Positions 83 to 62,381 of a stretch of 64,000 nt of DNA are shown here, in pieces (the first letter of the stretch is position 1; each line of letters begins with the position of its first letter). The notes below the pieces were generated by a model. The model was not told where the DNA came from and made no database searches. It saw only the letters and a program-made list of their open reading frames with translations. A program made the position numbers and the translations under genes. The DNA is from Sulfurospirillum diekertiae (GTDB taxonomy: Bacteria > Campylobacterota > Campylobacteria > Campylobacterales > Sulfurospirillaceae). The stretch covers positions 1,240,001 through 1,304,000 of the forward strand of contig NZ_CP039734.2 in the NCBI RefSeq assembly GCF_011769985.2. The letters are read 5' to 3'.

Positions 83-94
83 TTTACATGTAAA
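83..94. repeat. TTTACATGTAAA palindrome, intergenic copy
   Basis: Perfect 12-bp copy extended to a 14-bp palindrome (82-95). It lies between the tRNA and the rubrerythrin-VIT1 gene, about 22 bp upstream of a TATAAT box, so here it could overlap a promoter or operator. Confidence 0.9.
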
Positions 95-115
95 AATTTT
101 AGTTTGAAAGTGGAG

Positions 116-121
116 TATAAT
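116..121 (+). promoter_or_regulatory. Candidate -10 box for the rubrerythrin-VIT1 gene
   Basis: TATAAT lies 30 bp upstream of the ATG at 152. No convincing -35 hexamer is seen at normal spacing, which is usual for sigma-70 promoters in Campylobacterota, where AT-rich periodicity replaces it. Confidence 0.45.
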
Positions 122-151
122 GTTTGAGCATTAAATGGCAAAGGAGCTAAA

Positions 152-1024
152 ATGACACACGGTATAAACGTTAAAAAGGCATTGAAGCAGCAACAAAATG
201 AACTCGATGATTTTACAATTTACAGTATGCTCTCCAAGTCTGATAAAAATGGAGCCAATCAAACCATTTTTCACAAAATTGCTGAAGAAGAGAAAAGACA
301 TTACCTCTATCTCAAAACCTATACGAATCAAGAACAACGACCTCGTCCTCACGTTGTTTTCTTTTATCTTTTACTTTCCAAAATTGTGGGTATCTCTTTT
401 ACGCTCAAATTTTTAGAGAAACGTGAAGAGGGTGCTAAAGCATTTTATCAAGAGCTTATCGCCATCGATCCTAAAGCAGAAGGTATTTTTGAACAGGAAA
501 TGCACCATGAAATAGAGCTCATTGACATGTTGCATGACAAAAAGCTCCTCTATGCCGGTGCTATTGTTTTAGGAATGAACGATGCCTTGGTTGAGTTAAC
601 AGGAACACTCAGTGGTATTGCTTTGGCATTTGATCGAAGTATTGTGGTAGGTGTTACGGGGCTTATTATGGGTATTGCAGCAGCACTGTCGATGGCAGGT
701 TCTGCCTATTTGGAATCCAAAGAAAATATAGGGGATGAAGTCAAACCCTTGACGTATGCTCTTTATACAGGCATTTCGTATATTTTGACAACAGCACTGC
801 TTGTTGCGCCTTTTTTTATCATAAATCAGATATCTGTAGCGATTATTTGGATGTTTATTGGAGCAATATTAACCATTTTTTTATACAATTTTTATATTTC
901 GGTCGCAAAAGACTTGTCGTTTTGGCTACGTGTGCGTGAAATGTCTTATATTACCTTTGGTGTTGCGCTGATCTCATTTGGTATTGGTTATGTGGTTAAA
1001 CACTATTTTGGCATTGAAATATAA
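152..1024 (+). CDS. Rubrerythrin-VIT1 fusion, membrane-bound ferritin-like iron transporter
   Basis: 290 residues. The N-terminal half (about 1-130) is a ferritin-like/rubrerythrin domain with diiron-type residues: Glu around 17, an EEExxH stretch near 45-49, and an EMHHE stretch near 115-119. The C-terminal half (about 135-290) is a VIT1/CCC1 membrane domain with around five hydrophobic helices. Fusions of this kind (MbfA type) sense or oxidise Fe(II) in the cytoplasm and move iron across the inner membrane, often as export during iron or peroxide stress. The ATG at 152 follows AGGAG at about 140. It is a single gene between a tRNA and fumC. The family call is firm; transport direction is inferred. 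Confidence 0.85.
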   Translation: MTHGINVKKALKQQQNELDDFTIYSMLSKSDKNGANQTIFHKIAEEEKRHYLYLKTYTNQEQRPRPHVVFFYLLLSKIVGISFTLKFLEKREEGAKAFYQELIAIDPKAEGIFEQEMHHEIELIDMLHDKKLLYAGAIVLGMNDALVELTGTLSGIALAFDRSIVVGVTGLIMGIAAALSMAGSAYLESKENIGDEVKPLTYALYTGISYILTTALLVAPFFIINQISVAIIWMFIGAILTIFLYNFYISVAKDLSFWLRVREMSYITFGVALISFGIGYVVKHYFGIEI

Positions 1025-2548: not shown

Positions 2549-2618
2549 TTACATGTAATAGTTTTGTGACTACGGTATGCCTTTTGCATAAACTCCTTTA
2601 AATTTTTAAGGAGTGATT

Positions 2619-3561: not shown

Positions 3562-3573
3562 TTTACATGTAAA
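3562..3573. repeat. TTTACATGTAAA palindrome between convergent genes
   Basis: Part of an 18-bp perfect palindrome (3559-3576, ATC...GAT) that fills the 30-bp gap between the ankyrin gene and the convergent outer-membrane factor gene. Confidence 0.9.
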
Positions 3574-5015: not shown

Positions 5016-6173
5016 ATGTTAGAAAAACTCAAACAGTATCGTTTAGGTGTGGCTATTTTAGCTTTGGTCTTAATTGCTTCGGGACTTATTATCCATAAAC
5101 TCATTGCTCCAACGCTTGCAGCCAATTTAGTTCAAGGTTCTGGACGTATGGATGGTGATTTGATAAATTTAAATGCCAAGTATGCAGGGCGTATTTCTAC
5201 TTTAAACATTCAAGAAGGGCAACACGTTGAGCTAGGTCAAAACATAGCCGTCCTTGCAAGCGAGGAATATGAAGCGCAAAAGGCACAAATAGAAGCCCAA
5301 ATAAGTGCACGAACACAAGAGTTAAACGCCAAAGAGACAGAGCTTGAAATTGCTTCCAAAACCATTCCTGAAACACTCTCAAAAGCCAAAGACAATCTCT
5401 CTATTAAACAACATCAACGCACAGAACTTGATAAAAATATCGCCTCACAAACCAGTATTTTAGCGCAAGACAAGCACGATCTTGAGCGTATGAAAAATTT
5501 GTTTGAACACAATCTCATCGAAAAGCGTCAGGTAGAAACCGCAGTGCTCAAATTCCAAACCAGTGGCGATTTACTGGCAGGATTACAACAAAAAAGAGAG
5601 CAACTCAGTCTTGCAATCAATGTTGCCAACAGCGAGCTCATCGAAGCAACAGCGCATCAAAAAACATTACGTGCCTTGGAACAAGGTATCGAGGCACTCA
5701 AGTCATCCCTGAAAGCGTTAGAAGCGTCTAAAACTCAAATCGAAGCGATCTTACATGAGATGATATTGCGTTCTTCTGTGAATGGCGTTGTCGTGGAAAA
5801 AATTGCCAATCAAGGTGAAGTCATCGGGGCTGGAAGTGTGGTTGCTACCTTGCTTGATCCAAACTCCCTTTATCTAAAAATATTTGTCGATACCAAACAA
5901 AATGGAAACCTTCAGGTTGGCAATGATGCCGTCATCTTTTTAGATGGAAAACCCAATGAACCCATCCAAGCTAAAGTCGTGCGCATTGAGCAAAAAGCGG
6001 AGTTTACTCCCAAAGAGGTCAGTGTTCCGAGTGATCGCATTCAAAGGGTTTTTGCTTTACATGTAAAACCCCTTTCACCACAACCAACGCTCAAACTGGG
6101 CATTCCTGCTGTTGGTGTTGTCTCCATGGATGGCAAAGGGTTACCAAAGAGTTTAAACAACGTTCCTGAATGA
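5016..6173 (+). CDS. HlyD-family periplasmic adaptor protein
   Basis: 385 residues. It has one N-terminal membrane helix (about 11-31), a biotinyl-lipoyl-like half (GRISTLNIQEGQHVELGQNIAVL, about 60-85), a long alpha-helical hairpin (about 90-250), the second lipoyl half (VVVEKIANQGEVIGAGSVV) and a beta-barrel. This is the membrane-fusion protein that bridges the inner-membrane ABC permeases and the TolC-like duct. The ATG follows AAGGAG. The next gene starts 7 nt after the stop. A copy of the iterated palindrome near the 3' end encodes Leu-His-Val-Lys. Confidence 0.9.
   Translation: MLEKLKQYRLGVAILALVLIASGLIIHKLIAPTLAANLVQGSGRMDGDLINLNAKYAGRISTLNIQEGQHVELGQNIAVLASEEYEAQKAQIEAQISARTQELNAKETELEIASKTIPETLSKAKDNLSIKQHQRTELDKNIASQTSILAQDKHDLERMKNLFEHNLIEKRQVETAVLKFQTSGDLLAGLQQKREQLSLAINVANSELIEATAHQKTLRALEQGIEALKSSLKALEASKTQIEAILHEMILRSSVNGVVVEKIANQGEVIGAGSVVATLLDPNSLYLKIFVDTKQNGNLQVGNDAVIFLDGKPNEPIQAKVVRIEQKAEFTPKEVSVPSDRIQRVFALHVKPLSPQPTLKLGIPAVGVVSMDGKGLPKSLNNVPE
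6056..6067. repeat. TTTACATGTAAA palindrome inside the adaptor gene
   Basis: Perfect copy in coding sequence, read in the frame that gives Leu-His-Val-Lys (context FALHVKPL). Confidence 0.9.
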
Positions 6174-10023: not shown

Positions 10024-10035
10024 TTTACATGTAAA
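10024..10035. repeat. TTTACATGTAAA palindrome between convergent genes
   Basis: Sits 2 bp from the stop of the MarC gene in the 52-bp gap between the exporter operon and marC, flanked by AATCTT and AGATT. Confidence 0.9.
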
Positions 10036-10708: not shown

Positions 10709-11314
10709 ATGAAAAAAGAGATCCTTTACCTAACCGAATACTTAGCTAAAAGTGAAAGCGAGCAAGAGCGAACTTTTTATGCACTATTGATTCAAAACCT
10801 TGCCGACTTAGAGGTGTACTCACCGACTAAATTGACACAAGCGCAGATTGCCTCTTTGATGTCACGACAAGGATTGAGCGTTCCTTCTAGTTTTAAAGAG
10901 GGAATTCAAGCACTCGATACTTTATTTGAATCATTCATTCCAAAGCCACTTCAAGAGGCAAAAAAAACTCTTTTTATGACTCTTCTTCATGCAAACTTTC
11001 CTAAAAAGAAAGGTTTTTTGAGTGTCTCTTTAGAGCTTTTTCTCTCACAACTAGAACCTGTTGAAATGAGCATCTATGAGAGCCTATTAGCCTATGTTGC
11101 TGGACTCAACCGTGCTCTTGCTCTTTTCTTTATCTTAGGTAAAGAAGATACTCAAAACTTTACACCTGAGCGTTTAGTTGCTTTTGGAGAATCTTTACAT
11201 GGTAAACTTTTAGCATTTCTTTTTAATGAAGAAGAGACGGCACTTTTGAATCAAGGTCTTAAAGAATTACTGGGTGTTTACCTCAGTTTATATGGCAAAT
11301 ATCTTTACATGTAA
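10709..11314 (+). CDS. Conserved-looking protein of unknown function
   Basis: 201 residues from ATG 10709 (AGGGGC upstream); the frame is open further 5' but would then overlap marC. The sequence is mostly helical and soluble, with several leucine-rich amphipathic helices and no cysteine, signal peptide or recognised motif. The last three residues and the stop codon are supplied by a copy of the TTTACATGTAAA palindrome. No family could be assigned. Confidence 0.65.
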   Translation: MKKEILYLTEYLAKSESEQERTFYALLIQNLADLEVYSPTKLTQAQIASLMSRQGLSVPSSFKEGIQALDTLFESFIPKPLQEAKKTLFMTLLHANFPKKKGFLSVSLELFLSQLEPVEMSIYESLLAYVAGLNRALALFFILGKEDTQNFTPERLVAFGESLHGKLLAFLFNEEETALLNQGLKELLGVYLSLYGKYLYM

Positions 11315-11315
11315 A
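11304..11315. repeat. TTTACATGTAAA palindrome forming a stop codon
   Basis: Spans the end of the upstream gene: it encodes Leu-Tyr-Met and the TAA stop. This is the only in-gene copy in the stop-bearing frame, and it is at the gene end. Confidence 0.9.
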
Positions 11316-13472: not shown

Positions 13473-14142
13473 ATAAAATACTTCCCAAACGAATCATGTT
13501 AGAACCACAGGCAATTGCTAATTCAAAATCTCCACTCATACCCATTGAACAATATTTCGCACCATAATTTTGGAGTGATTCAAAGATTTTATGCGTGGTT
13601 TCAAAGCTCTTTTGAATAACAGCGCACTCTTCGGTATGTGCACCAATACTCATGACACCTTTAAGCTGAAGGTGTTTACATGTAAGCACGATTTGTTCAT
13701 ACACTTCGATTGCTTGCTCAGGCAGAACACCCGCTTTTTGTTCTTCATAGGCACTGTTGATTTGAAGCAGAACGTTCATGGTTTTATTCTTTACATGTAA
13801 ACGTTTGTCGATCTCTTGGGCAAGCTCTAAAGAGCTTAGAGAGTGCATCAATGATGGCTCTAAATCGATGAGTTGGTTGATTTTGTTGGTTTGTAATCGT
13901 CCTATAAAATGCCATTCAAGTGGGAGGCGTGAAAGTGCATGAACTTTGTCACTCATATCTTGAATTTTATTTTCACCAAAACAACGTTGACCTGCATGGT
14001 ACATCGCTTCAATCATAGAAGGATCAGCGCTTTTACTTGCTGCAACAATCTTAACAATCAAGTGTTGATCGACACTCAAACGCGCTTTTTCAACGCGTGT
14101 GAGAATATCATCCAAAGTATTTACAAAATTTTTAGTTTCCAT
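13465..14142 (-). CDS. YggS/PLPBP family pyridoxal-phosphate homeostasis protein
   Basis: 225 residues in an alanine racemase-like TIM barrel. The PLP lysine is in IVAASKSAD (about residue 33), followed by the family hallmark CFGENKIQD and, near the end, SMGMSGDFELAIACGSNMIRLGS with the phosphate-binding segment. The family has no enzymatic activity and keeps free PLP and amino-acid pools in balance. Its start lies inside the end of rseP (11-nt overlap). It contains one perfect and one imperfect copy of the iterated palindrome. Confidence 0.92.
   Translation of the reverse strand: METKNFVNTLDDILTRVEKARLSVDQHLIVKIVAASKSADPSMIEAMYHAGQRCFGENKIQDMSDKVHALSRLPLEWHFIGRLQTNKINQLIDLEPSLMHSLSSLELAQEIDKRLHVKNKTMNVLLQINSAYEEQKAGVLPEQAIEVYEQIVLTCKHLQLKGVMSIGAHTEECAVIQKSFETTHKIFESLQNYGAKYCSMGMSGDFELAIACGSNMIRLGSILFK
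13790..13801. repeat. TTTACATGTAAA palindrome inside the yggS-like gene
   Basis: Perfect coding copy giving Leu-His-Val-Lys on the minus strand (context RLHVKNK). A second, TTTACATGTAAG, lies 104 bp away at 13675-13686. Confidence 0.9.
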
Positions 14143-15190: not shown

Positions 15191-15732
15191 CAGTTGCTCT
15201 CTATTTTTGTGTAGCCAATGATATATTCATAACCAGAGTACAATGTAAGTCCAACAGCAACCCATAAAAGTAACTCAGCATAAGGCCAGTTCATCATTAA
15301 AAAGCCAATGGCAATCATCTGAAAAACAGTTTTGACTTTACCCGCCATACTCGCAGCAATATTCTTACCTTCACCCATTGCCGCTACACGAAGTCCTGTA
15401 ATAAAAAATTCACGTGTTAGGATAAGAAAAATGGCCCAAGGGTTAGCCCGATCAATCATCATCAGTCCCAAAAATGCCGCTAAGGTAAGCATTTTATCAG
15501 CAAGTGGATCAAGAATAGCACCCAGTTGTGTTTTCTGATTCCAATTACGTGCAATATAGCCATCAAAAAAATCTGTTGCGCTCGCAATAACAAAAATAAG
15601 TGCAGCAAAGTAATCTAACCAACTTACATGTAAGCCCTTAAACAAGGGTAAATCACGATTGACTAAAAGAATAAACATAAGGGGTGCTAAGCCAATACGC
15701 ATAGAGGCTAGAAGGTTTGGAAGATTCATCAT
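15190..15732 (-). CDS. pgsA: CDP-diacylglycerol--glycerol-3-phosphate 3-phosphatidyltransferase
   Basis: 180 residues, inner membrane. The CDP-alcohol phosphotransferase motif is complete: DFFDGYIAR, eight residues, GAILDPLADK. The enzyme makes phosphatidylglycerol phosphate for phospholipid synthesis. The start is one of two adjacent ATGs that overlap the stop of the upstream enoyl reductase gene. About four to five membrane helices. It contains CTTACATGTAAG at 15623-15634. Confidence 0.92.
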   Translation of the reverse strand: MMNLPNLLASMRIGLAPLMFILLVNRDLPLFKGLHVSWLDYFAALIFVIASATDFFDGYIARNWNQKTQLGAILDPLADKMLTLAAFLGLMMIDRANPWAIFLILTREFFITGLRVAAMGEGKNIAASMAGKVKTVFQMIAIGFLMMNWPYAELLLWVAVGLTLYSGYEYIIGYTKIESN

Positions 15733-18698: not shown

Positions 18699-19763
18699 TC
18701 ATCTCCTATCGCTTCCTATAACTTCACTAATATGATTAAATCCATCTTTTTCCATGCGCTCCAAAATACCAAGATTGATTGCACGGTTAAGAGAAGGTCC
18801 TTTAAAAATGAATGCCGAATAAATTTGAATCAAACTTGCTCCCGCTTTCAGTCTTCGGTAGGCTTCATCCGCTGAATCAATACCCCCAACTGAAATGAGT
18901 GTCGTTTTGCCAAAAAACTCTTTCGCGAGAGCTTCAAACATGACAAAACTTTTTTCTGTTAGCACTTTGCCGCTCAGACCACCAAAGTCTCTTGCATTGG
19001 GAATCAAAGAATAGTCAACGGTTGTGTTGGTTGCTACGATTCCCGCAGCTCCATTTTCAAGGGCCGTTGAGCTTACATGTAAAGCATCATTGATCTCAAG
19101 ATCGGGTGCAATTTTAAGAAGTACCGGTTTTAAGGTTAACTCTTTTGCCATCACAAAAAGATCTTTAATAAATTGCTCATTCTGCAAATCTCGAAGACCT
19201 GGAGTATTCGGAGAAGAGATATTGATGACCAAATAATCGCTTAAATCTTTAAAGCGTTTAATTAACTTTTCGTAGTCTTTGAGTGCATTTTCAACCGTAG
19301 TCGTTTTGTTTTTTCCTATATTGGCACCTAAAGGTGTTGCAAAGGGGTAAAGTGACTCTAAGCGCGTGCCGACTTTATACATACCTTCATTGTTAAATCC
19401 CATTGCATTTTGAATGGATTCTTGTTCTACGTAGCGAAATAACCTTGGTTTTGCATTGCCATTTTGTGGCTCAGGCGTAATCGTTCCATACTCAATATGA
19501 CCAAATCCAAGAGCGGTAAGCATTTGAATCATCGTTGCATTTTTATCAAAACCTGCACCAAGACCCAGAGGATTTAAAAATGTTTTACCAAAAATAGTTT
19601 GTTCCAAACGTTTATCATGAATAAAAAAATGCTCAGCCAATGGTGAAAGAATAAAAGGAGCATAGGTGGCACCATTCTTAAAGAAAAATTCTGCAATATG
19701 GTGGGCATTCTCAGGAGAGAAGTTAAACATGAATTTTTTCATCAGGCCATAATAATCAAACAT
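18699..19763 (-). CDS. pyrD: Dihydroorotate dehydrogenase, class 2 (quinone-linked)
   Basis: 354 residues. The N-terminal amphipathic helices (about 1-40) dock the enzyme on the inner membrane. The barrel carries FMN contacts such as NPLGLGAGFDKNA and NAMGFNNEG, the catalytic Ser segment VINISSPNTPGLR, and the late ISVGGIDSADEAYRRLKAGA phosphate site. It oxidises dihydroorotate to orotate with quinone in pyrimidine synthesis. It contains CTTACATGTAAA (19072-19083). Confidence 0.95.
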   Translation of the reverse strand: MFDYYGLMKKFMFNFSPENAHHIAEFFFKNGATYAPFILSPLAEHFFIHDKRLEQTIFGKTFLNPLGLGAGFDKNATMIQMLTALGFGHIEYGTITPEPQNGNAKPRLFRYVEQESIQNAMGFNNEGMYKVGTRLESLYPFATPLGANIGKNKTTTVENALKDYEKLIKRFKDLSDYLVINISSPNTPGLRDLQNEQFIKDLFVMAKELTLKPVLLKIAPDLEINDALHVSSTALENGAAGIVATNTTVDYSLIPNARDFGGLSGKVLTEKSFVMFEALAKEFFGKTTLISVGGIDSADEAYRRLKAGASLIQIYSAFIFKGPSLNRAINLGILERMEKDGFNHISEVIGSDRR

Positions 19764-21553: not shown

Positions 21554-22951
21554 TTAGTTCACCTTTTCCCACTGTGTCCCCATCGCTGTATCCATGAGTT
21601 GTATCTGCTTGGACTCTAGTAGTGTGCGAATTTCATCTGCTTTTGCAAAATCTTTGGCTTTTTTGGCAACTATTCGGTTTTCAATCAATGCTTCAATCTC
21701 CGCTTTTTCAGCGTCACTAACACCGATTTGAAAGTACATGTAAGGATTGTAAAGTCCAATGCCTAGGAGCAATTCAATCCATTGTAAATTGGCATGTGTG
21801 GTTGCTTTGAGTGCTTTATCTTTAGGATTAAGATCGAGCATTTCATTCGCTGAAGTGATCATCTCATCCAAACTTGCAAGGGCTTTGGAAATATTAAGAT
21901 CATCACTGAGTGCTTCCAGCATTGCCTCTTTAAAAGGAGCCGAGACTTCACTTGGTATGTTTTCAAAAACTCTCTTTTTCAATCGATAGAGTTTATCAAG
22001 GCGTTTTTTGGTGTTTAATAGATCTTCTTCGGAAAAATTGAAATTCGCACGATAATGTGTTGCAAGCAAGTAAAAGCGAAGCACTTCGCCACTGTAAATG
22101 GCAAGTGCATCTTTTAAAAAGAAACTATTTCCTAGTGATTTACTCATTTTTTCGCCGCTAATGGTGACAAAGCCATTGTGCATCCAGTATTTGGCGAGTT
22201 CTTGATGACTTTTACATCTGGTTTGTGCCGCTTCATTTTCGTGGTGTGGGAAGAGAAGATCGGCACCTCCTGCATGAATATCGATCTGAAAATTGCCACT
22301 GCTCGCAAGATGTTTTTCAATCATCGCAGAACACTCAATATGCCATCCCGGGCGTCCTACACCAAATGGGGCAGAGTAGCTAGGTTCATTGGCTTTTGAG
22401 AATTTCCACAATGCAAAATCTTTTTGATCTTTTTTCTCTTCTTTTTGCTCGACGCGTGATTGACTCGCATCTTCTTCAATGTTGCGGTGACTGAGGCTAA
22501 GGTATTTGGCATCTTTTGAGGTATCAAAATAGATCCCATCACTGGTTGCATAAGCGACTTTTTTGCGAAGCATTTCATCCACAAACGAAATGATTTCCGA
22601 CACCGTCTCCGTCGCCTTTGGTTCAATGTCCGCATCCTTTACATGTAAAGCATGCATTTCATTTTTGTAGCGCTCAATGTAAAAAGAGGTAATCTCCTCA
22701 AGTGACTTTCCACTCTCTTTCATTTTGTTAATAATTTTATCATCAATATCAGTGAAGTTCTTAACAAACGTTACGTGATAACCAAGAGCAATAAATACAC
22801 GACGTAAAAGATCAAAAGCAATAGCACTTCTTGCGTGTCCTAAATGAGCATCATCATATACAGTTGGACCGCAGACATAAATTTTAACTTCATTCTCTTG
22901 AATAGGAATAAACGATACTTTTTTCTTCTGTACTGAATCATAAATAAACAT
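21554..22951 (-). CDS. cysS: Cysteinyl-tRNA synthetase
   Basis: 465-residue class I synthetase. Zinc and ATP sites are seen in [16 protein letters not shown] (about 27-42, HIGH-type), [14 protein letters not shown] and KMSKS (about 268). The length is normal. It overlaps the 3' end of murJ by 14 nt. A perfect coding copy of the iterated palindrome is at 22638-22649. Confidence 0.96.
22638..22649. repeat. TTTACATGTAAA palindrome inside cysS
   Basis: Perfect coding copy giving Leu-His-Val-Lys (context HALHVKDA) in a surface-type region between conserved blocks. Confidence 0.9.
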
Positions 22952-38891: not shown

Positions 38892-38954
38892 TTTTTACCA
38901 CTATTTATAAATTTTTCTATTGTACCATTTATTAAAAAAAGAAAACAAATTCAT

Positions 38955-42175: not shown

Positions 42176-42572
42176 CTTTTGTCCTTATTACAAGTTCTTT
42201 TTTTTCAATTTCATTCTGAAGAATAACACTATTGCGTGTAATTTTTATTAGCATATAAGATCCTATAAGATCATTTTTTTTGTACCAATTACCATTTATT
42301 TTTGCTTTTTGATCAAAAGTAGCTTCTAAAACATAAGTAGATGCTTGTGCGGTTGCATTGTTTTCACTCTCATTTTGTTCTGAAGAAAGAATAATAAAAG
42401 GATTTTCGAGCTTATCAATCATAATCGAATCAGCACCTGATCTTCTTTCCGCAATTTTTTCAAAAATTTTATCATACTCTTTGACTTCACTGCTCGCAGG
42501 CAATTTATCTTGTGCTTCTATAACAGTAAACATAAGCAATAATCCTAAAATAGGCTTCATTAAAGTTTTCAA
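42144..42572 (-). CDS. Small secreted protein of the uptake operon (CtsR/PilP-like position)
   Basis: 142 residues from TTG 42572, which overlaps the upstream stop (TTGA) and follows GGGGGA; ATG 42560 is an alternative. Signal peptide about 1-20, then a short disordered part and a beta-rich end (INGNWYKKNDLIGSYMLIKITRNSVILQN) that resembles the HR/PilP-type domain that touches the secretin. Function inferred from position between the PilO-like protein and the secretin. Confidence 0.6.
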   Translation of the reverse strand: MKTLMKPILGLLLMFTVIEAQDKLPASSEVKEYDKIFEKIAERRSGADSIMIDKLENPFIILSSEQNESENNATAQASTYVLEATFDQKAKINGNWYKKNDLIGSYMLIKITRNSVILQNEIEKKELVIRTKDDSNIKIFSK

Positions 42573-43216
42573 TATTTCATCCCCCAAACAGCAATATTGA
42601 ATTGACCCTCAATATCTTTTTGACCTGTACAGTTGAGCTCATAAATATCAACAACCAATTCACTTTCTTCGATAGCATTCATATACTTCATTGTATTGGC
42701 GAAAGAACCATTAAAAGAAACTTTTAGAGTTAAAATTTGCTCTATTTTTTGAATACTTGGCTCGTTGATTTTATTTTCAATAACTTTAATACGAACAGAA
42801 TATTTTTGTGCCAATTGGCTAATTGTATTAAGAAATTTTGCCCAATTTTCATCATTGAATAACAGATAGGAGAGATCTTTGAGTTTATTATCTACGTAAT
42901 CATTCATATAAATTGTTTTTTCTAAAAGGAGTTTAGAATTTTCAATATCTGACTTAACTTTTTTAATTAAAAAAGTTGCATCTCCATCTCTCGATACAGA
43001 AGTCAAGTAAGCTTGTTCATCATGAAGCTTCTTTTCAATGTCTTTTGCACTTCGCATTGACTGATTCAATATTTTTTCTGTTACAGGATAAAGATAGCTG
43101 TAGAAAATAAATCCAATGACGACAAAGGCCATCGCAAAAATTAAGTAAATTTCGTTATTTTTTTTATCTTTAAAAAAAAGATCAATTTTATCTAAAAGTG
43201 AATCAATACTATTCAT
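42569..43216 (-). CDS. PilO-like pilus assembly protein
   Basis: 215 residues: short cytoplasmic start, one membrane helix (about 25-45), a coiled coil (about 50-105) and a ferredoxin-like end (about 130-213) with FNGSFANTMKYMNAIEES, the PilO pattern. It belongs to the inner-membrane alignment complex with the PilM/PilN-like protein encoded just upstream (8-nt overlap). Confidence 0.75.
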   Translation of the reverse strand: MNSIDSLLDKIDLFFKDKKNNEIYLIFAMAFVVIGFIFYSYLYPVTEKILNQSMRSAKDIEKKLHDEQAYLTSVSRDGDATFLIKKVKSDIENSKLLLEKTIYMNDYVDNKLKDLSYLLFNDENWAKFLNTISQLAQKYSVRIKVIENKINEPSIQKIEQILTLKVSFNGSFANTMKYMNAIEESELVVDIYELNCTGQKDIEGQFNIAVWGMKY

Positions 43217-44735
43217 TGCTCAATCCTATAGAGATTTTACTGGTATAGAGTTTAATCTTGTCATCCTGTATAATCTTTTCCGTATTGACTTTATATTTTT
43301 TTAGAGCTGTTAAATCTTTAATAAATTCTGTAATCTTTTTTTCATTTTTATTTCGAACAAAAAAATCAAGTTGCTGGTTTTTGAACTCAATTGCCTCGAC
43401 TTTACAACCATTTTGATTTGAAAGCTGAAATATTTCTAGTAGCATTAGTGCTTTCATAGGATATGATATTTTTTTATTATAAATTTCACTTAAAAGCTTT
43501 TTTCTAAATTCAAACTTCGTTGTTTCATTCTTAACCAAACCATCAACTTTTTCTTTCTCAGTTTTTAAAAGAGATAGTTGTTGCCTGATATCAGATGTCT
43601 GTTTGTATAACTCATTATACTCACTTGTCTGTTTTACAATTATCAAACTTAAAAAAGTATGGTATGCAAATTGATAAGCAGGATATGCGAGACTAATAAT
43701 AACACTTGCTGCCATAATGCCAAGAAATTTTCCTGAAGCTCTGTATTTAAGAGGAGGGGGTCTTTTATAAATGGAAAAATTAAGATTATCATCTGGATTT
43801 TCAATATAAAGTTGTGCACTAAGCATCATCAAAATATGAATTTGATCAATATACCACTCTTTGGAATTAATCGCTATACTAAAATTAAATTCATATGACT
43901 CTAATCCGAGATAGCTTTTCCCATATTCTTCAATACCCGAAAAAGTACCAATCTCTGATCCTAAATAGATTTTATCAATAAAATCTATATTGTAAGAACG
44001 TTTTGTAAAAACTAATACATCATTAATATAAAGGAATATCTCACCAAAAAGCTGCATTAAGCTTTGTTGATATTGGCTATTGGTAGCTCTTAATCCCTCG
44101 TTAGTAAGAAGTTTATAGAAATCTTCTTCATCAACACGCTCGCCGATCAGTTCACAAAATTTTTCATTAATCTCTTTTAATGAATAATGAAGTGATTTAG
44201 AATAAACATATTCACCATTTTTGTAAATTGCTAAAAAAGCATCTGTCTTTTGGAAATAAACAAAACAGTGTGTTCCATCTGCTTCAATAAAATTTTTGCG
44301 ATATAAAGCTTTAATAAGAAAAGGTGCAGAGGTTACATAATCAATATAACGTGTTTTTTCTTTAATGGGTGTCAATTTTGTATAAATAAGTGCTGCATCA
44401 ATAATAAAAACATTAAAAGAGCGATTTTTAGAATCTTTTGATTCTGTTTCAATATAACTTATAGAGTATTCGATAGCAGAATCAAGGGCTAATTCATCAT
44501 ATACTTTTATTTCAATAGCATCTTTAAGATCGCTATCAGGAATATTCCGACTTACATCAATAGTAGCACTAATAACATCACGCGTTTGAAGATATGAGGT
44601 ATAAAACGCATTCTTATCACTTTTTTCTAGTTTGTTAAGTTTGATTTCATTTTTTGAATAGGTATAAGAGACAAGTGATAAAGGGTCTATTGATACAATT
44701 TCTGAGCTAAAACGTCTATCCTCAGTTACGGCCAT
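43209..44735 (-). CDS. PilM-PilN-like fused alignment protein
   Basis: 508 residues. The first about 320 residues have no membrane segment and look like a degenerate actin-type (PilM/GspL) domain, with alternating beta strands such as HCFVYFQKTDAFLAIYKNGEYV. After NFSIYKRPPPLKYR (a PilN-like N-terminal segment with prolines) comes one membrane helix (about 342-360), a coiled coil and a ferredoxin-like end. In most systems PilM and PilN are two proteins. First gene of the uptake operon, 58 nt after era. Domain call is by topology and gene order. Confidence 0.65.
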   Translation of the reverse strand: MAVTEDRRFSSEIVSIDPLSLVSYTYSKNEIKLNKLEKSDKNAFYTSYLQTRDVISATIDVSRNIPDSDLKDAIEIKVYDELALDSAIEYSISYIETESKDSKNRSFNVFIIDAALIYTKLTPIKEKTRYIDYVTSAPFLIKALYRKNFIEADGTHCFVYFQKTDAFLAIYKNGEYVYSKSLHYSLKEINEKFCELIGERVDEEDFYKLLTNEGLRATNSQYQQSLMQLFGEIFLYINDVLVFTKRSYNIDFIDKIYLGSEIGTFSGIEEYGKSYLGLESYEFNFSIAINSKEWYIDQIHILMMLSAQLYIENPDDNLNFSIYKRPPPLKYRASGKFLGIMAASVIISLAYPAYQFAYHTFLSLIIVKQTSEYNELYKQTSDIRQQLSLLKTEKEKVDGLVKNETTKFEFRKKLLSEIYNKKISYPMKALMLLEIFQLSNQNGCKVEAIEFKNQQLDFFVRNKNEKKITEFIKDLTALKKYKVNTEKIIQDDKIKLYTSKISIGLSNE

Positions 44736-45697: not shown

Positions 45698-47023
45698 TTA
45701 TAAAATATAGCGACTACTATCTTCGCTTTCTACGATGGCATCAAGTTTTGCATGGACGAGTTCTTTGGTTACATGTAATGTCTCACCTTCGTGCTCATCG
45801 GCTGTATAACTGATATCTTCTAATACTTTTTCTATAATGGTATGCAATCTTCTTGCTCCAATATCTTCTGTTTTTTCATTGGTAATTTGTGCAATTTTTG
45901 CAATGGAAGCAATAGCATCATCATCAAAAACAAGTTCAACACCTTCAGTTTTTAAAAGGGCTTGGTATTGGCGCAAAAGCGAGTTTTTGGGTTGTGTTAA
46001 AATTTGGTAGAGAACTTCTTCTGTCAATGAACTGAGCTCAACGCGCAGTGGAAAACGTCCTTGAAGCTCAGGAATAAGATCACTGGGTTTACTCAAATGA
46101 AAAGCACCTGCTGAAATAAAGAGAATATGGTCGGTTTTAATGCTACCGTATTTGGTATTGACATCACTGCCTTCAACAATAGGCAAAAGATCGCGTTGAA
46201 CACCCTCTTTGCTTGGATCGCTTCGGTGAGATTGTGAAGAGCTTACCGCGATTTTATCAATCTCATCAATAAAAATAATACCACCATTTTGAGCACGCTC
46301 TCTGGCTTCACTTTTGACAGCTTCCATGTCCAGAAGTTTTTCGCTTGCTTCAATTTTAAGTGCCTCTTTGGCATCTTTGACTTTCATCTCTTTTTTAATA
46401 TTACCCTGACCCGCACCCAAGATTTTAATAAAAGACTCTTGCACTTTAATCATTTCAGGTGGTAAGGATGAATCCCCTAAATCATTATTGTTTTGAGAAA
46501 TCTCCACTTCAATTTTCAGATCATCGAGTTCGCCATCACGAAGTCTTTGTCGCATCTTTTCATAACTTTTTTCATAGTCAGCTTTTTTCTCTTCACTTAC
46601 GCCTTTTGGAAGTGGTGGAAGCAGTTTTTCAATGATAGCTTTTTCTACATGTAAAGCAATATCATCTTGATTTTTCTCTTTGTGCTCTGCTTTGACAAGG
46701 TTAATGGACGCCATCATAAGATCACGTACCATTGACTCAACATCACGTCCCACAAAACCTACTTCGGTGTATTTGCTGGCTTCTACTTTGACAAAAGGAA
46801 GCGAGAGCATTTTTGCCATACGACGTGCTATTTCTGTTTTTCCTACACCTGTTGAGCCAATCATTAAAATATTTTTTGGCATCACTTCTTCTGCCATTTC
46901 ACCTTCAAGCTTCAATCTCCGATATCGATTTCGAAGGGCAATAGCAATAGATTTTTTTGCATTAAATTGTCCGATGATATACTCATCTAAGTAAGCAACG
47001 GTTTGTTTGGGTGTTAAATTCAT
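45698..47023 (-). CDS. hslU: HslU, ATPase of the HslUV protease
   Basis: 441 residues. Walker [10 protein letters not shown] (about 57-65), the I domain (about 110-240, here with a charged insert), Walker [12 protein letters not shown], sensor [12 protein letters not shown] and the C-terminal tail ending SSRYIL that docks in HslV. It unfolds and threads proteins into HslV. 4-nt overlap with hslV. It contains TTACATGTAA at 45769-45778. Confidence 0.96.
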
Positions 47024-48030: not shown

Positions 48031-48414
48031 TCATGATCGAATATTTTTGGGAAATGGGGCATTTTTCAGTTTTTCACCGTGAAAGGCATCAATGCCGCCA
48101 CTGAGATGGGCAATATTTGAAAAGCCCATTCTTCGTAAAATAAATATCATTTGTGCTGTGCGCCCACCGGTATGGCAGTAAAAAATCAAAAGCTTACTCG
48201 CAAGTTTTTTAAGTTCATCCATGTGTTGATGAATGGTTGAAGTCGGTAATAGCATGTCTGTACCTTTGATACAAGACAGTGAGAACTCATACATCTCTCG
48301 AATATCGACCAGCACAAAATCAAGTTTTTTTTGTGCTCTTAAATTCAGCATTACATGTAACTCTTCACCACTGACTTCACAGCTTCTCGTTACTGTTTTA
48401 ACTAAATTCATCAT
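48031..48414 (-). CDS. Single-domain rhodanese-like protein
   Basis: 127 residues if started at ATG 48414 (GGAG and GAAG upstream); GTG 48453 would add 13 residues but has no ribosome site. Catalytic loop [11 protein letters not shown] carries the persulfide Cys, and [10 protein letters not shown] is the usual entry motif. It likely transfers sulfane sulfur in the cytoplasm. Lies between argG and rplI. TTACATGTAA (48351-48360) is in its coding sequence. Confidence 0.85.
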
Positions 48415-49771: not shown

Positions 49772-49783
49772 TTTACATGTAAA
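49772..49783. repeat. TTTACATGTAAA palindrome between divergent genes
   Basis: Lies in the 156-bp gap between argG and the S4 gene, 63 bp before the S4 start. Extends to a 14-bp palindrome with C/G at the ends. Confidence 0.9.
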
Positions 49784-51502: not shown

Positions 51503-52211
51503 AGTTCAAGAATTACAAAAAGTGATTAAAAAAACGGAAATTATTAAAGGAGTTTCCCTTGATGTTCAAAGTGGTGAAGTTGTAGGTCTTTTAGGACCCA
51601 ATGGTGCAGGTAAAACAACAATGTTTTATATGATTTGTGGTCTTATCCCTCCAAGCTCTGGCGTTGTTTTTTTAGATAATCAAGATGTCACTCAAATACC
51701 TTTACATGTAAGAGCAAAACTGGGTATTGGTTACCTTCCTCAAGAATCAAGTATTTTTAAAGATTTGAGTGTGGAAGAGAACATTATGCTTGCTGCTGAA
51801 ATTGTTTATCCCAATAAAGAAAATGCAATGAAGCGCGTGGAAGAGCTTTTAAATTTGCTCAATATTGAACCGATTCGTAAACGAAATGGCGTCAGTCTGA
51901 GCGGTGGTGAAAGACGCCGTTGTGAAATTGCACGTTCCTTGGTCTTAAAACCCAAATTTCTTCTTCTTGATGAACCTTTTGCGGGTGTCGATCCTATCGC
52001 TGTATCAGACATTCAAGGTATTGTACAAGAGCTTGCAAAATTGGATATTGGTGTTTTGATTACGGACCATAATGTACGCGAGACCCTCGCCATTTGTGAT
52101 AGGGCATATGTACTTAAAGATGGAGCTCTTTTGGCGAGCGGTAGCAGTGAAGAAGTTGCTCAAAACAAACTGGTGAAGACCTATTATCTTGGTGAAGATT
52201 TCAGGTTTTAA
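51489..52211 (+). CDS. lptB: Lipopolysaccharide export ATPase LptB
   Basis: 240 residues: Walker A GPNGAGKTT (about 36-44), Q-loop LPQESSIFKDLSVEEN, signature LSGGERRR, Walker B FLLLDEPFAGVDP and switch His in TDHN. It powers LPS extraction by LptFG from the inner membrane. The order tsaE-lptB-rpoN is conserved. TTTACATGTAAG at 51701-51712 encodes Leu-His-Val-Arg. Confidence 0.95.
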   Translation: MHTLKVQELQKVIKKTEIIKGVSLDVQSGEVVGLLGPNGAGKTTMFYMICGLIPPSSGVVFLDNQDVTQIPLHVRAKLGIGYLPQESSIFKDLSVEENIMLAAEIVYPNKENAMKRVEELLNLLNIEPIRKRNGVSLSGGERRRCEIARSLVLKPKFLLLDEPFAGVDPIAVSDIQGIVQELAKLDIGVLITDHNVRETLAICDRAYVLKDGALLASGSSEEVAQNKLVKTYYLGEDFRF

Positions 52212-53501: not shown

Positions 53502-54328
53502 GCACTTTTTGCATCGGCATGTCTGAAGTGCATTTTAAGCATTTCATAGGCATTTTGAACCTCTTGAAACTTCGCAACATACTTTACATGTAAATCGCCA
53601 TCGTAAAGCCCACAACTATCCGGATGATATTTTTTAACCAGTGTAAGATAATTGCTACGAATCATATCAAAGGAGTCTTCCATCTTACATCCAAGAACAC
53701 CAAAATACTCTTCAAGTAAAGAGAAGAGGGCATTATGTCGGCTTCGTTTAGCACGTTTGGATACAAAACTCTTTTTATAGGCTAAAAAATCGTCCATAGA
53801 ATAAGAAAACTCTACAAAACACCCAAAAAGCTCCTTTTGTGCCAAGAGTTTCTCTAAAAGACATACCGTAATCTCTGAGTTTGGATAGAGCGTAATGGTG
53901 CCATTCTTGGGGCGAATTCTGACTAAATGGTCTTTAAAATAGCTTTTCAGGTAGGACGCAAAAAGCGTGTTATGTGAACCCATATAAAAGACAACTGCAT
54001 AATTGTCTTCAATGCAGAGTTGAATGTTCATTTTTTGAAGGACTTGATTGGATTTTAGAAGCGAAATCTTGATACTTTTATCGATTGTATTTTCGATGAT
54101 ACGTGCTTGTTCCACATTACCCGTTTTTCGTAGATAAATTTTACTGATCAATTTTAAAAAGTAACGGCGTTGCACTAACTCATCTTGCTCTTTAAAAATA
54201 ATCATCTTATCTTTGCGTCCAATCTTCTTTTGAAAGTTTTTATCGGCAATATTTTGTAAAAAATAAAAGGTTTTTGAATCTTCTTCTATCGTAAGAGCTA
54301 GCATATCATGAGAGAGAGAAAGGTGCAT
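53498..54328 (-). CDS. DnaJ-domain protein, membrane-free
   Basis: 276 residues. The J domain is at the C-terminus (about 208-272) with the HPD motif in LVKKYHPDSCG, which should stimulate a DnaK. The first 200 residues, rich in aromatic and basic residues, match no family I recognise. The layout (unknown N-terminal part, J domain at the end) and its place beside bpt are also seen in Campylobacter. Perfect palindrome copy at 53583. Confidence 0.85.
   Translation of the reverse strand: MHLSLSHDMLALTIEEDSKTFYFLQNIADKNFQKKIGRKDKMIIFKEQDELVQRRYFLKLISKIYLRKTGNVEQARIIENTIDKSIKISLLKSNQVLQKMNIQLCIEDNYAVVFYMGSHNTLFASYLKSYFKDHLVRIRPKNGTITLYPNSEITVCLLEKLLAQKELFGCFVEFSYSMDDFLAYKKSFVSKRAKRSRHNALFSLLEEYFGVLGCKMEDSFDMIRSNYLTLVKKYHPDSCGLYDGDLHVKYVAKFQEVQNAYEMLKMHFRHADAKSA
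53583..53594. repeat. TTTACATGTAAA palindrome inside the DnaJ-like gene
   Basis: Coding copy giving Leu-His-Val-Lys (context DLHVKYV), a few residues after the HPD motif. Confidence 0.9.
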
Positions 54329-55301: not shown

Positions 55302-55313
55302 TTTACATGTAAA
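55302..55313. repeat. TTTACATGTAAA palindrome upstream of the small gene
   Basis: Ends 10 bp before the ATG at 55291 (minus strand); its TAAA merges with the AAAGG ribosome site, so it may be in the leader of the bpt operon. It is the last copy before the accessory region. Confidence 0.9.
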
Positions 55314-59091: not shown

Positions 59092-59103
59092 TTTACATGT
59101 AAA
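59092..59103. repeat. TTTACATGTAAA palindrome, first of an inverted pair
   Basis: With TTTACATGTAAC at 59120-59131 it forms a 13-bp stem (TTACATGTAAAGC 59093-59105 with GCTTTACATGTAA 59118-59130) around 12 bp, immediately after the porin terminator and before the chemoreceptor gene. Confidence 0.9.
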
Positions 59104-59159
59104 GCTTTAAATGTATGGCTTTACATGTAACTAAAAATACATGCTCAAGGATTACAGAT

Positions 59160-61046: not shown

Positions 61047-61048
61047 GC

Positions 61049-61681
61049 ATGTCAGATATGTCTTCATTTTTGTGTCAAGACTGTATTGTTGATTTTAAGC
61101 AAGATGTGATGAATATGCTAATTCACACCATAGAACTAAAAGATATCTATACATCAGGCCATTCAGAGCAAGTGGCTCGTTATTGTTGTTCAATTGGTAA
61201 TGCTCTTAACTTAGGGTTAAAGGATACAATTCTTTTATACCAATCTGCTTTTATGCATGACATAGGAAAAATTCTTATTGATCCTAAAATTTTGCAAAAA
61301 AATGATTATTTGACGAAAGAAGAATATGAGAGTGTTAAAAAACATTCTACTTTTGGAGCTCAAATGCTTCAAAATATCAATTTATTTCAAGAGCATGCTC
61401 AAATCGTTAAACATCATCATGAAAGATGGGATGGAACAGGCTATCCAGATGGTCTTACAAATAAAAAGATACCATTTTTTTCCAGAATCATTGCGATAGT
61501 TGATGCTTTTGATGCTATGACATCTATGCGAAATTATAAAAATAAATGCACATTTGATGAAGCTCTTAATGAGTTGGATCGTTGCAGTGGAACGCAGTTT
61601 GATCCGGAACTTGTTTCAATTTCCGTGAAAGTCCTCAGTGCATTTATTAACAACAACGCATTCAATAAAAAAATATGTTAA
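61049..61681 (+). CDS. HD-GYP cyclic di-GMP phosphodiesterase, stand-alone
   Basis: 210 residues, almost only an HD-GYP domain: HSEQVARYC, HDIGKI (metal-binding HD), HHERWDGTGYPDG (HHExxDGxGYP) and the late SAFIN end. All metal ligands and the GYP residues are present, so an active c-di-GMP phosphodiesterase is expected. No receiver or sensor domain of its own. Two nt after the chemoreceptor gene and presumably regulated with it. Confidence 0.92.
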   Translation: MSDMSSFLCQDCIVDFKQDVMNMLIHTIELKDIYTSGHSEQVARYCCSIGNALNLGLKDTILLYQSAFMHDIGKILIDPKILQKNDYLTKEEYESVKKHSTFGAQMLQNINLFQEHAQIVKHHHERWDGTGYPDGLTNKKIPFFSRIIAIVDAFDAMTSMRNYKNKCTFDEALNELDRCSGTQFDPELVSISVKVLSAFINNNAFNKKIC

Positions 61682-61727
61682 AGTTTAATAATGACATATA
61701 ATAAAGTTTGATGAATAAAGGAAGACT

Positions 61728-62381
61728 ATGTTAGATGAAATAAGAACAATTACCATCAAAGAATTAAAAGAAGAGATCAAAGAAAATCTAGAATATGCTC
61801 ATCCCGAAAAAAATGAAAGTGTAGCTGCTGCCAATGCCTTTGGTGTACACTATGGATTTAAACCCTATGTAAATGATATTTTTTTTGCAACAGAAGATGA
61901 AGCGGTTGCCTATACGTTTAACACAGAAACAATCTATCAAAACATTAAAGAGCTTAATGATAGTGCAAAAGTTATTGAAAGTTATGATGATACAGAAGAT
62001 ACCTTGTGCTATGCTATTTTTAATGATATTGATAAAATTGCTCTTAAACAAGTCTTTTTTAGCCCCAAATCACAAAATGAAATTACAATCAAATTTCTCT
62101 TTGAAGAAGAGCAACTTTGTGTCTCTGATGAGAGTTCTCTAATGTTTACATGTAAACTAATGGATAGCGGTGAGACTGTATGGAACGAGGAAGAAAGTAT
62201 TGAATTAATGTTCGAAAAAGAAGGGATTTTATACCCTGAGAATATTCGTAAGTTAGTAGAGGGCTTGTGGCTTTCTTGGAGAAACTATGAAAGAACTCTT
62301 GAAGAACTTGAAAAAGATCTAAATGCTTTAGTAGCATGGATTAATGCAATGACAAAAACAAAGCCCAATTTTATAGAATAA
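61728..62381 (+). CDS. Acidic protein of unknown function in the sensory cluster
   Basis: 217 residues, Glu-rich, soluble, no signal peptide (AAAGGAAG before ATG). Only sparse cysteines and no known motif. The late segment LVEGLWLSWRNYERTLEELEKDL is a clear amphipathic helix. It lies between an HD-GYP gene and a histidine kinase in one direction, so a signalling or adaptor role is plausible but not shown. Perfect palindrome copy at 62145. Confidence 0.65.
   Translation: MLDEIRTITIKELKEEIKENLEYAHPEKNESVAAANAFGVHYGFKPYVNDIFFATEDEAVAYTFNTETIYQNIKELNDSAKVIESYDDTEDTLCYAIFNDIDKIALKQVFFSPKSQNEITIKFLFEEEQLCVSDESSLMFTCKLMDSGETVWNEEESIELMFEKEGILYPENIRKLVEGLWLSWRNYERTLEELEKDLNALVAWINAMTKTKPNFIE
62145..62156. 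repeat. TTTACATGTAAA palindrome inside the unknown gene
   Basis: Coding copy in the Phe-Thr-Cys-Lys frame (context MFTCKLM). Confidence 0.9.

What the first reader, a model, noticed from the sequence alone, without database searches (positions are those of the whole stretch)
83..62156. A 12-bp palindrome, TTTACATGTAAA, iterated across the whole window
Perfect 12-mers start at 83, 3562, 6056, 10024, 11304, 13790, 22638, 30222, 34110, 34129, 39875, 49772, 53583, 55302, 59092 and 62145 (16). The 10-bp core TTACATGTAA also occurs with other flanks at 2549, 13676, 15624, 19073, 26542, 28541, 28818, 35866, 45769, 48351, 51702 and 59121, making 28 in 64 kb. Assuming about 37% GC and independent bases, I estimate about 0.2 for the core. 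It is embedded in unrelated genes, where it reads only as Leu-His-Val-(Lys) or Phe-Thr-Cys-(Lys), because the third frame has a stop. The flanking TT/AA are conserved, while bare ACATGT without them is much rarer. This behaves like cyanobacterial HIP1 or a DNA uptake sequence: a site kept for its DNA, not for protein. I know of no description in this phylum.
Basis: partly seen in the sequence, partly recalled or inferred. Interest (0 to 1): 0.93.

Follow-up and report, generated by a model that had tools for sequence, protein, structure and literature searches.

The report
Genome-wide palindrome in Sulfurospirillum
In the free-living bacterium Sulfurospirillum and a scatter of its relatives the palindrome TTACATGTAA is written hundreds to over a thousand times per genome and stays at the same places while the DNA around it changes; it likely works as a 'self' mark, predicted to be methylated at its centre, that would let cells recognise their own DNA when they take DNA up.

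Summary
Genome-wide there are 791 12-mers against 1 for the reversed control, and 1220 10-mers against 8. The genome is a Sulfurospirillum diekertiae. The word occurs across the genus and patchily in the phylum: 25 of 397 genomes have at least 100 copies. It bends protein sequence (LHV 95 seen, 19 expected) and is kept at orthologous places (22/24, 21/24, 16/20 sites in three species; control 10-mers 24%, 30%, 9%). S. cavolei has a looser dialect. G009 has lost the word (0/22 kept; ACATGT 562, control 563), although cts-like, comEC and dprA genes are present. Its orphan NlaIII-type (CATG) methyltransferase gene is cleanly missing from its conserved locus, as in two other site-poor genomes examined. 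The four lowest genus genomes all lack this gene, but G013 and genomes in other genera keep the word without it. No MutL passed the cut-off, so HIP1's mismatch-repair model does not fit. Best reading: an uptake-sequence-like self mark with a methylated core. Main rival: a HIP1-like word without an uptake role. No methylation or uptake data.

The parts
83..94 (.). TTTACATGTAAA, upstream of ORF 152-1024
   Evidence: gap in the alignment to G005 and G006
2549..2558 (.). TTACATGTAA, intergenic between co-directional genes
   Evidence: perfect in G005 and G006
3562..3573 (.). TTTACATGTAAA, intergenic between convergent genes
   Evidence: 10-mer perfect in G005 and G006
6056..6067 (.). TTTACATGTAAA inside ORF 5016-6173, read Leu-His-Val
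   Evidence: changed in G009
10024..10035 (.). TTTACATGTAAA, intergenic between convergent genes
   Evidence: 10-mer perfect in G005 and G006
11304..11315 (.). TTTACATGTAAA at the 3' end of ORF 10616-11314, read Tyr-Met-stop
   Evidence: perfect in G002, changed in G005, G006 and G009
13676..13685 (.). TTACATGTAA inside ORF 13465-14142 (-), read Thr-Cys-Lys
   Evidence: perfect in G005, G006, G002; changed in G009
13790..13801 (.). TTTACATGTAAA inside ORF 13465-14142 (-), read Leu-His-Val
   Evidence: perfect in G005, G006, G002; changed in G009
15624..15633 (.). TTACATGTAA inside ORF 15190-15732 (-), read Leu-His-Val
   Evidence: perfect in G005, G006, G002; changed in G009
19073..19082 (.). 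TTACATGTAA inside ORF 18699-19763 (-), read Leu-His-Val
   Evidence: perfect in G005, G006; changed in G002, G009
22638..22649 (.). TTTACATGTAAA inside ORF 21554-22951 (-), read Leu-His-Val
   Evidence: perfect in G005, G006, G002; changed in G009
26542..26551 (.). TTACATGTAA inside ORF 26407-26964 (+), read Leu-His-Val
   Evidence: perfect in G005, G006, G002; changed in G009
28541..28550 (.). TTACATGTAA inside ORF 28229-29002 (+), read Leu-His-Val
   Evidence: perfect in G005, G006, G002; changed in G009
28818..28827 (.). TTACATGTAA inside ORF 28229-29002 (+), read Thr-Cys-Lys
   Evidence: perfect in G005, G006, G002; changed in G009
30222..30233 (.). TTTACATGTAAA inside ORF 29274-30713 (+), read Phe-Thr-Cys-Lys
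   Evidence: 10-mer perfect in G005, G006; changed in G002, G009
34110..34121 (.). TTTACATGTAAA, first of a pair 19 bp apart between convergent genes
   Evidence: predicted folding energy of the pair -17.5 kcal/mol
34129..34140 (.). TTTACATGTAAA, second of the pair
35866..35875 (.). TTACATGTAA, intergenic between convergent genes, at the 3' end of the cts-like operon
   Evidence: perfect in G005, G006, G002
39875..39886 (.). TTTACATGTAAA inside ORF 39829-40638 (-), read Leu-His-Val
   Evidence: perfect in G005, G006, G002; changed in G009, G010
45769..45778 (.). TTACATGTAA inside ORF 45698-47023 (-), read Leu-His-Val
   Evidence: perfect in G005, G002; changed in G006, G009, G010
48351..48360 (.). 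TTACATGTAA inside ORF 48031-48453 (-)
   Evidence: perfect in G005, G006, G002; changed in G009
49772..49783 (.). TTTACATGTAAA, intergenic between divergent genes
   Evidence: perfect in G005, G006, G002
51702..51711 (.). TTACATGTAA inside ORF 51489-52211 (+), read Leu-His-Val
   Evidence: perfect in G005, G006, G002; changed in G009, G010
53583..53594 (.). TTTACATGTAAA inside ORF 53498-54328 (-), read Leu-His-Val
   Evidence: perfect in G005, G006, G002; changed in G009, G010
55302..55313 (.). TTTACATGTAAA, intergenic between divergent genes
   Evidence: perfect in G005, G006, G002
59092..59103 (.). TTTACATGTAAA, intergenic, in the block identical to G005/G006
   Evidence: pair with 59121, spacing 28 bp
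59121..59130 (.). TTACATGTAA at the start of ORF 59115-61046 (start codon uncertain)
62145..62156 (.). TTTACATGTAAA inside ORF 61728-62381 (+), read Phe-Thr-Cys-Lys
35902..44735 (-). [quoted passage not shown] Its make-up recalls the Campylobacter cts transformation operon (name recalled, not tested); a possible reader of the word
   Evidence: all eight genes found over their full length in G009 (63-95% identity) although G009 has lost the word

Best explanation
TTACATGTAA (full form CTTTACATGTAAAG) is a genome-wide word that Sulfurospirillum keeps against mutation and that likely serves as a self mark for DNA uptake: the pilus-type competence machinery would favour DNA carrying it, and its CATG centre is predicted to be adenine-methylated by an orphan NlaIII-type methyltransferase. 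Shown: the excess, the conservation of individual sites, the dialects, the loss in G009, and the absence of the methyltransferase gene from its conserved locus in three site-poor genomes. Inferred: that this absence is a deletion, that the enzyme acts on CATG, that the mark is read during uptake, and that recombination with preferentially taken-up kin DNA restores mutated sites and so keeps the word abundant. On this reading, loss of the methyltransferase removes the mark, the drive stops, and sites decay even though the competence genes remain.
For: Copy number and layout resemble known uptake sequences: 1220 copies in 2.78 Mb; 125 of 187 sampled sites in genes, intergenic density about 7 times higher, densest between convergent and least dense between divergent genes; no trend along the chromosome. 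For comparison, passages of PMC1939737 give 65% of H. influenzae and 35% of N. gonorrhoeae sites in ORFs, with a non-coding excess. Individual sites are held: 22/24, 21/24 and 16/20 in G005, G006 and G002 against 24%, 30% and 9% for control 10-mers (three sites in a 100%-identical block dropped for G005 and G006). Single-base variants of the inner 8 bp show almost no excess (29 seen, 20 expected, beside 187 perfect). 12 neighbour pairs 16-22 bp apart among 416 sites from ten genomes (about 1.3 expected); at least two are orthologues of another, and G000 alone has five. Methyltransferase link: 17 of 24 genus genomes carry the ~325-aa gene and all 17 have ACATGT at about 3.4 times the control or more; the four lowest genomes (1.0, 1.5, 1.7, 2.6) all lack it; in G009, G017 and G021 its locus is intact without it (G022 not examined). 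Immediate neighbours in G000, G002, G010 and G014 show no restriction-enzyme family. Three relatives at 55% identity are named 'Modification methylase NlaIII'. Precedent: C. jejuni uptake needs a CtsM-methylated motif (PMC8468864, passages). A related genome, G032, carries a different, non-palindromic word, TGCGTGAG: 962 copies against 33 for its control. The window suggests homologous exchange between species.
Against: No uptake or methylation data. Competence genes do not separate rich from poor genomes: cts-like, comEC and dprA genes are present in poor G009, while rich G001 and G013 have dprA hits in two separated pieces and rich G011 has an apparently broken ctsX-like gene. The methyltransferase is neither necessary nor sufficient: G013 (934 copies) has none, nor have G184, G149, G317 and G377 in other genera; 222 of 397 phylum genomes have a relative, and only 18 of those 222 have 100 copies or more. 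Known uptake words are not palindromes, and the same paper argues that most are not inverted repeats (PMC1939737, passages). The genus association rests on few independent losses, placed by one gene tree, and its rank test ignores kinship.
Confidence: 0.45

Rival explanations
1. A HIP1-like word: the orphan NlaIII-type methyltransferase (or another with the same core) methylates CATG, and some methylation-dependent process other than uptake (repair bias, gene or chromosome regulation) creates and keeps the flanked palindrome.
For: Palindrome with a predicted 4-bp methylated centre, like GATC in GCGATCGC. Deviations fall on the outer bases, as reported for HIP1 (PMC4390886, section 2.6 and the first part of 3.4). 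Site decline goes with absence of the methyltransferase. Genomes with a divergent methyltransferase (G010, G014) have a looser dialect.
Against: No MutL over the cut-off in any of 24 genus genomes, so the proposed mismatch-repair ratchet lacks a part. Sites persist without the methyltransferase in G013 and in other genera; many genomes have a relative and no word. ACATGT outside the word is at expectation, and CATG in genes is only slightly over it (1537 vs 1468).
Confidence: 0.27
2. Binding site of an abundant dimeric DNA-binding protein that organises or segregates the chromosome, or silences or insulates genes; lost or altered in G009, G017, G021 and G022.
For: Symmetric 10-14 bp site with graded flank preference, about one per 2.5 kb, individually conserved, with flank dialects.
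Against: No trend with distance from the start of C1, taken as the origin because the GC skew changes sign near 1.4 Mb, and no regular spacing; least dense in divergent (promoter) gaps. Complete loss in G009 would mean abandoning a structural system, and no candidate protein was sought or found. Only 4 sites on the 39.9-kb plasmid (16 expected).
Confidence: 0.18
3. By-product of codon use, protein repeats, a mobile element or a terminator family.
For: Some pairs look like terminators.
Against: 122 genic copies against 9.9 in synonymous shuffles; sits in unrelated genes in two frames; flanks beyond 2 bp are near background, so there is no larger element; pairs are few (12 of 416).
Confidence: 0.02

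Closest known systems
DNA uptake sequences of Neisseriaceae and Pasteurellaceae (DUS/USS)
   Same: 10-12 bp word, about one per 2-2.5 kb here, found in genes with a non-coding excess, some pairs as inverted repeats, bends proteins, lineage dialects (dialects, copy numbers and protein effects of DUS/USS are recalled; ORF share, non-coding excess and about 10% inverted repeats from PMC1939737 passages)
   Different: Palindromic, so without orientation; a different phylum; predicted methylated core; uptake role untested; reader protein unknown
HIP1 (GCGATCGC) of cyanobacteria and its alternates
   Same: Iterated palindrome, orphan methyltransferase for the centre generally present, outer bases vary most, replaced or lost in some lineages (PMC4390886 abstract and sections named above)
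   Different: AT-rich 10-14 bp; no MutL over the cut-off, so no ready mismatch-repair mechanism; the methyltransferase is not required in all bearers
CtsM methylation-gated uptake of Campylobacter jejuni
   Different: The motif there is RATTY as that paper prints it (RAATTY as recalled), a different and shorter sequence
NlaIII/HpyI-type CATG methyltransferases
   Same: The ~325-aa protein is a D12-class adenine methyltransferase with relatives named NlaIII (HpyI recalled)
   Different: No restriction-enzyme family among its immediate neighbours in four genomes; specificity not measured

Membership tests
DNA uptake sequence (DUS/USS) | Short word in great excess over composition, genome-wide | tested here: met
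   791 vs 1 and 1220 vs 8 against the reversed control; 122 vs 9.9 in synonymous shuffles
DNA uptake sequence (DUS/USS) | Host has competence genes | tested here: met
   cts-like operon in the window, ComEC in 23 of 24 and DprA in 24 of 24 genus genomes; that they work is not shown
DNA uptake sequence (DUS/USS) | DNA bearing the word is preferentially taken up | not testable with these tools
   needs an uptake assay
DNA uptake sequence (DUS/USS) | Word lost when competence is lost | tested here: inconclusive
   G009 lost the word with cts-like, comEC and dprA genes present; G001, G011 and G013 keep it with a split or broken gene
DNA uptake sequence (DUS/USS) | Non-palindromic word | tested here: not met
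   perfect palindrome; known ones are not palindromes (PMC1939737 passages)
HIP1-type highly iterated palindrome | Overabundant perfect palindrome in coding and non-coding DNA | tested here: met
HIP1-type highly iterated palindrome | Orphan methyltransferase for the centre generally present where the word abounds | tested here: inconclusive
   17 of 24 in the genus; among genomes without decline only G013 and two incomplete ones (G018, G019) lack it; 17 of 25 rich genomes phylum-wide at 45% identity or more
HIP1-type highly iterated palindrome | Deviations concentrated at the outer bases | tested here: met
   outer base of the 10-mer 27 vs 2.6 expected, inner bases 29 vs 20
HIP1-type highly iterated palindrome | Methylation-directed mismatch repair available (Elhai model) | tested here: not met
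   MutL TIGR00585 over cut-off in 0 of 24 genomes, in 11 of 14 controls; MutS was not searched
HIP1-type highly iterated palindrome | Centre is methylated in vivo | not testable with these tools
   needs long-read modification data
Transcription-factor regulon | Sites in promoter regions | tested here: not met
   least dense between divergent genes; two thirds in genes

The most novel reading that the evidence does not exclude
Free-living Campylobacterota carry lineage-specific, genome-wide self words: TTACATGTAA with an ACATGT dialect in S. cavolei, and unrelated TGCGTGAG in a member of another family. These words gate DNA uptake through the Cts pilus, and in Sulfurospirillum the gate reads a methylated palindrome, uniting what were thought separate things: neisserial uptake sequences, cyanobacterial HIP1 and C. 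jejuni's methylation check.
Probability: 0.3. Interest if true: 0.92.

Novelty: new variant of a known kind. Interest (0 to 1): 0.78.

Why it matters
Uptake sequences are established in two proteobacterial families (recalled), and the function of HIP1 is still open. Another phylum with a conserved, dialect-forming, individually preserved palindrome, a natural loser of the word (G009) and genomes that lack a candidate methyltransferase gives a ready comparative system for asking how a thousand dispersed sites arise, are maintained and collapse, and whether methylation and uptake are the same story. It would also offer a practical lead for transforming dechlorinating Sulfurospirillum.

Tried and rejected
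Simple competence-loss model: comEC, dprA and cts-like genes do not track the word. A methyltransferase as the phylum-wide determinant: rejected, relatives are widespread without the word and absent in some bearers. Dialect switch in G009: no other word of comparable strength in 100 kb, and ACATGT equals its control genome-wide; it is not below the control, so purging by a new restriction enzyme is unlikely. Terminator family: only a minority of sites. Ori/ter or segregation signal: no trend. Mismatch-repair ratchet: no MutL over the cut-off. PF12836 (ComEA-like HHH) was searched, but its strong hits lie mostly in open frames of about 660-740 aa (two shorter) and were not interpreted; the strong hit is missing in G013, G019 and G022. 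The ctsX-like gene tree holds 20 rows; G011, G015, G019 and G020 were left out, I did not check the frame or ends of every row, and G001 and G002 have long branches; only the groupings G009+G017 (support 82/81) and G021+G022+G013+G018 (83/69, inside a 100/99 group with G023) are used. Max-order Markov expectation is uninformative for a word enriched as a whole; order-3 Markov, the reversed control and synonymous shuffles were used instead. Enrichment of GCAATTGC in L032, L040 and L044 shrank under codon shuffling (15 vs 7.7, one frame) and was dropped. In the conservation test three sites (59092, 59121, 62145) were dropped from the G005 and G006 counts because they lie in a 100%-identical block; with them the counts are 25/27 and 24/27; the control 10-mers still include that block. 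From G010's own sites none could be aligned to a relative. One search read the methyltransferase ORFs on the wrong strand for some loci and was redone. Three phylum-rich genomes (G149, G317, G377) are taken to lack the methyltransferase because they are not among the 222 matched genomes listed.
Full report
Identity. The window is bases 1,240,001-1,304,000 of a 2.78-Mb, two-contig genome. Its protein at 14132-15190 is 97% identical to that of Sulfurospirillum diekertiae JPD-1, and G004, listed as the same species, has that record's contig length of 2,814,086. Other G names are not known to me from calls.

Observation. All coordinates in the finding are right. Genome-wide counts are 791 (12-mer; control 1) and 1220 (10-mer; control 8). 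In 400 kb of sampled stretches the top-scoring 10-mer is TTACATGTAA. In 464 kb (with the window) its outer bases are soft (T before it in 76%, C at -2 in 49%), while single changes in the inner 8 bp show almost no excess over an order-3 Markov model (29 vs 20), beside 187 perfect sites. ACATGT outside the word is at expectation (75 seen, 77 expected).

Where it sits. 125 of 187 sampled sites are in predicted ORFs and 62 are intergenic (0.29 vs 2.06 per kb). By intergenic space, convergent gaps are richest (16 sites in 3.8 kb) and divergent ones poorest (9 in 7.4 kb) (ORFs by a simple longest-ORF rule, so edges are approximate). In genes it reads Leu-His-Val (76) or Thr-Cys (45), and once the stop frame. 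Leu-His-Val is seen 95 times where 19 are expected, 84 of them written TTACATGTA; Phe-Thr-Cys 33 vs 3.8. Counts per 20-kb stretch are not overdispersed. The plasmid has 4 where 16 would be expected. Across 416 sites from ten genomes, 12 neighbouring pairs are 16-22 bp apart (about 1.3 expected), with predicted folding energies of -11 to -20 kcal/mol. Some are orthologues of one another (the window's 34110/34129 pair recurs in G005 and G006), so fewer than 12 are independent; G000 alone has five. The window's pair lies between convergent genes.

Conservation. Aligning the window to the orthologous regions of five relatives: sites are perfect in 22/24 (G005, 84% identity), 21/24 (G006, 85%) and 16/20 (G002, 77%), while control 10-mers are perfect in 24%, 30% and 9%. 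In G009 (80%) 0/22 are perfect (control 11%), and in G010 0/7. From the other side, sites of G005, G006 and G002 are perfect in G000 in 24/29, 24/29 and 16/20. Single sites, not just the family of sites, are therefore preserved, and preservation has ceased in G009.

Distribution and dialects. In 24 genus genomes the 10-mer count runs from 49 (G009) to 1496 (G005). ACATGT against its reversed control is 562/563 in G009, 746/495 in G022, 805/462 in G017, 1436/561 in G021, 1566/440 in G013, 2031/330 in G010 and 1703/261 in G014. So G010 and G014 have not lost the word: they keep the ACATGT core with looser flanks (TKACATGTMA in G010). Phylum-wide, 25 of 397 genomes have 100 or more copies, 8 have 15-99, and 364 have 11 or fewer. 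The rich ones are 19 of the 22 sampled genomes of family f1, plus five of f8 and one of f3. G204 of f8 shows a further flank variant, ACATGTAG (8 seen, 0.5 expected in 20 kb).

Methyltransferase. PF02086 hits in the genus include a ~325-aa protein present in 17 of 24 genomes (in G012 only a fragment at a contig end; G018 and G019, counted as without it, are 86% and 77% complete). It sits between a response-regulator gene and a transglutaminase-like gene in most of the loci compared (in G002, G003 and G016 the upstream neighbour differs; in G010 and G014 the locus differs). A Pfam scan of immediate neighbours in G000, G002, G010 and G014 found response regulators, kinases, a chemoreceptor, a permease, transglutaminase, MerT and HMA proteins and some without a family, but no restriction enzyme. 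Three of the 120 listed relatives, all at 55% identity and from one uncultured Thioglobus name, are called Modification methylase NlaIII, so CATG is the predicted target; H. pylori HpyI as a further CATG relative is recalled. All 17 carriers have an ACATGT/control ratio of about 3.4 or more; the 7 without it have 1.0, 1.5, 1.7, 2.6, 3.5, 3.6 and 3.8 (Mann-Whitney p 0.002, not corrected for kinship). On a ctsX-like gene tree six of the seven fall into two groups, G009+G017 and G021+G022+G013+G018 (G019 was not in the tree). In G009, G017 and G021 the locus was fetched: flanking genes and a small neighbour gene are there, the methyltransferase is not, and no remnant is detectable. Against a causal role: G013 keeps 934 copies without it, and 7 of the 25 rich genomes phylum-wide have no relative at E 1e-20 (G346 has one at 39% identity); 222 of 397 genomes have a relative.

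Competence. The window holds a pilus/secretion-type operon (35902-44735) that I recognise from memory as the cts type. All eight genes are found at full length in G009. ComEC was found in 23 of 24 genomes, DprA in 24 of 24, though in two separated pieces in G001 and G013. The ctsX-like gene was found in 23 of 24 and looks broken in G011. Thus competence genes alone do not predict the word.

Mechanism. HIP1's proposed model needs methylation-directed mismatch repair; no genome of the genus has MutL over the cut-off (18 of 24 have weak hits to short parts of the model, mostly about residues 20-80, which I read as kinases). Known uptake sequences share the copy number (recalled), the non-coding excess, some inverted pairs, and (recalled) protein bending and dialects, but are not palindromic. 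C. jejuni shows that uptake in this phylum can be gated by a methylated motif. Joining these, I commit to a methylated self word read during DNA uptake, at 0.45; the steps 'methylated' and 'read during uptake' are both inferred. Supporting context: a genome of another family carries an unrelated iterated word, TGCGTGAG in G032 (962 copies against 33; 16-42 in nine other genomes), and the identity profile of the window suggests homologous exchange with G006.

Literature. Searches for the 12-mer and 10-mer letters and for Sulfurospirillum with methylome, uptake sequence, or overrepresented palindromic found no description of this word (listings only, apart from the papers named here). The one paper pairing Sulfurospirillum with overrepresented and palindromic concerns restriction sites (PMC4687349), and its main text does not contain CATG (passages). 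Most subscription papers and REBASE were not searchable.

Noticed in passing
G032 (family f8), whole genome; L223: A non-palindromic word, TGCGTGAG, occurs 962 times against 33 for its reversed control; nine other genomes searched, eight of them from the same genus, have 16-42. It occurs in several reading frames (10 vs 0.65 in synonymous shuffles of one 20-kb stretch).
   Followed up: partly
L215, L217, L218 (G329, G343, G353; family f8): AGATGC is 2.5-2.8 times over the synonymous-shuffle expectation (53 vs 19, 40 vs 14, 44 vs 18 in 20 kb each), while TGATGC is below it.
   Followed up: partly
L086 (Helicobacter bilis), 21 kb: AGATTCTA occurs 32 times in genes against 3.9 in synonymous shuffles.
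   Followed up: no
window 56000-64000 and 44250-55300: In aligned columns the right-hand 8 kb is 100% identical to G005 and G006 while most of the window is 73-86%; the 11 kb to its left is 84-99% identical (per 250 bp) to G006, mostly above its sister G005. This suggests recent transfer between species with homologous flanks.
   Followed up: partly
G001:C4:153796-177886 and G013:C8:271719-306839: DprA hits fall in two pieces about 24 and 35 kb apart, as if an element had inserted into dprA.
   Followed up: no
G011:C1:1481474-1482999: The ctsX-like gene matches in two overlapping frames with stops, so it is probably broken, in a word-rich genome.
   Followed up: no
G000:C2:1692-2600 (plasmid): The plasmid carries a second methyltransferase of the same type, closer to the S. 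cavolei version (61%) than to the chromosomal one (54%).
   Followed up: no
L107 6759-7451 and window 56690-57549: Transposase-like ORFs (judged by eye); L107 has a single site in 20 kb, the lowest of the 20 stretches.
   Followed up: no
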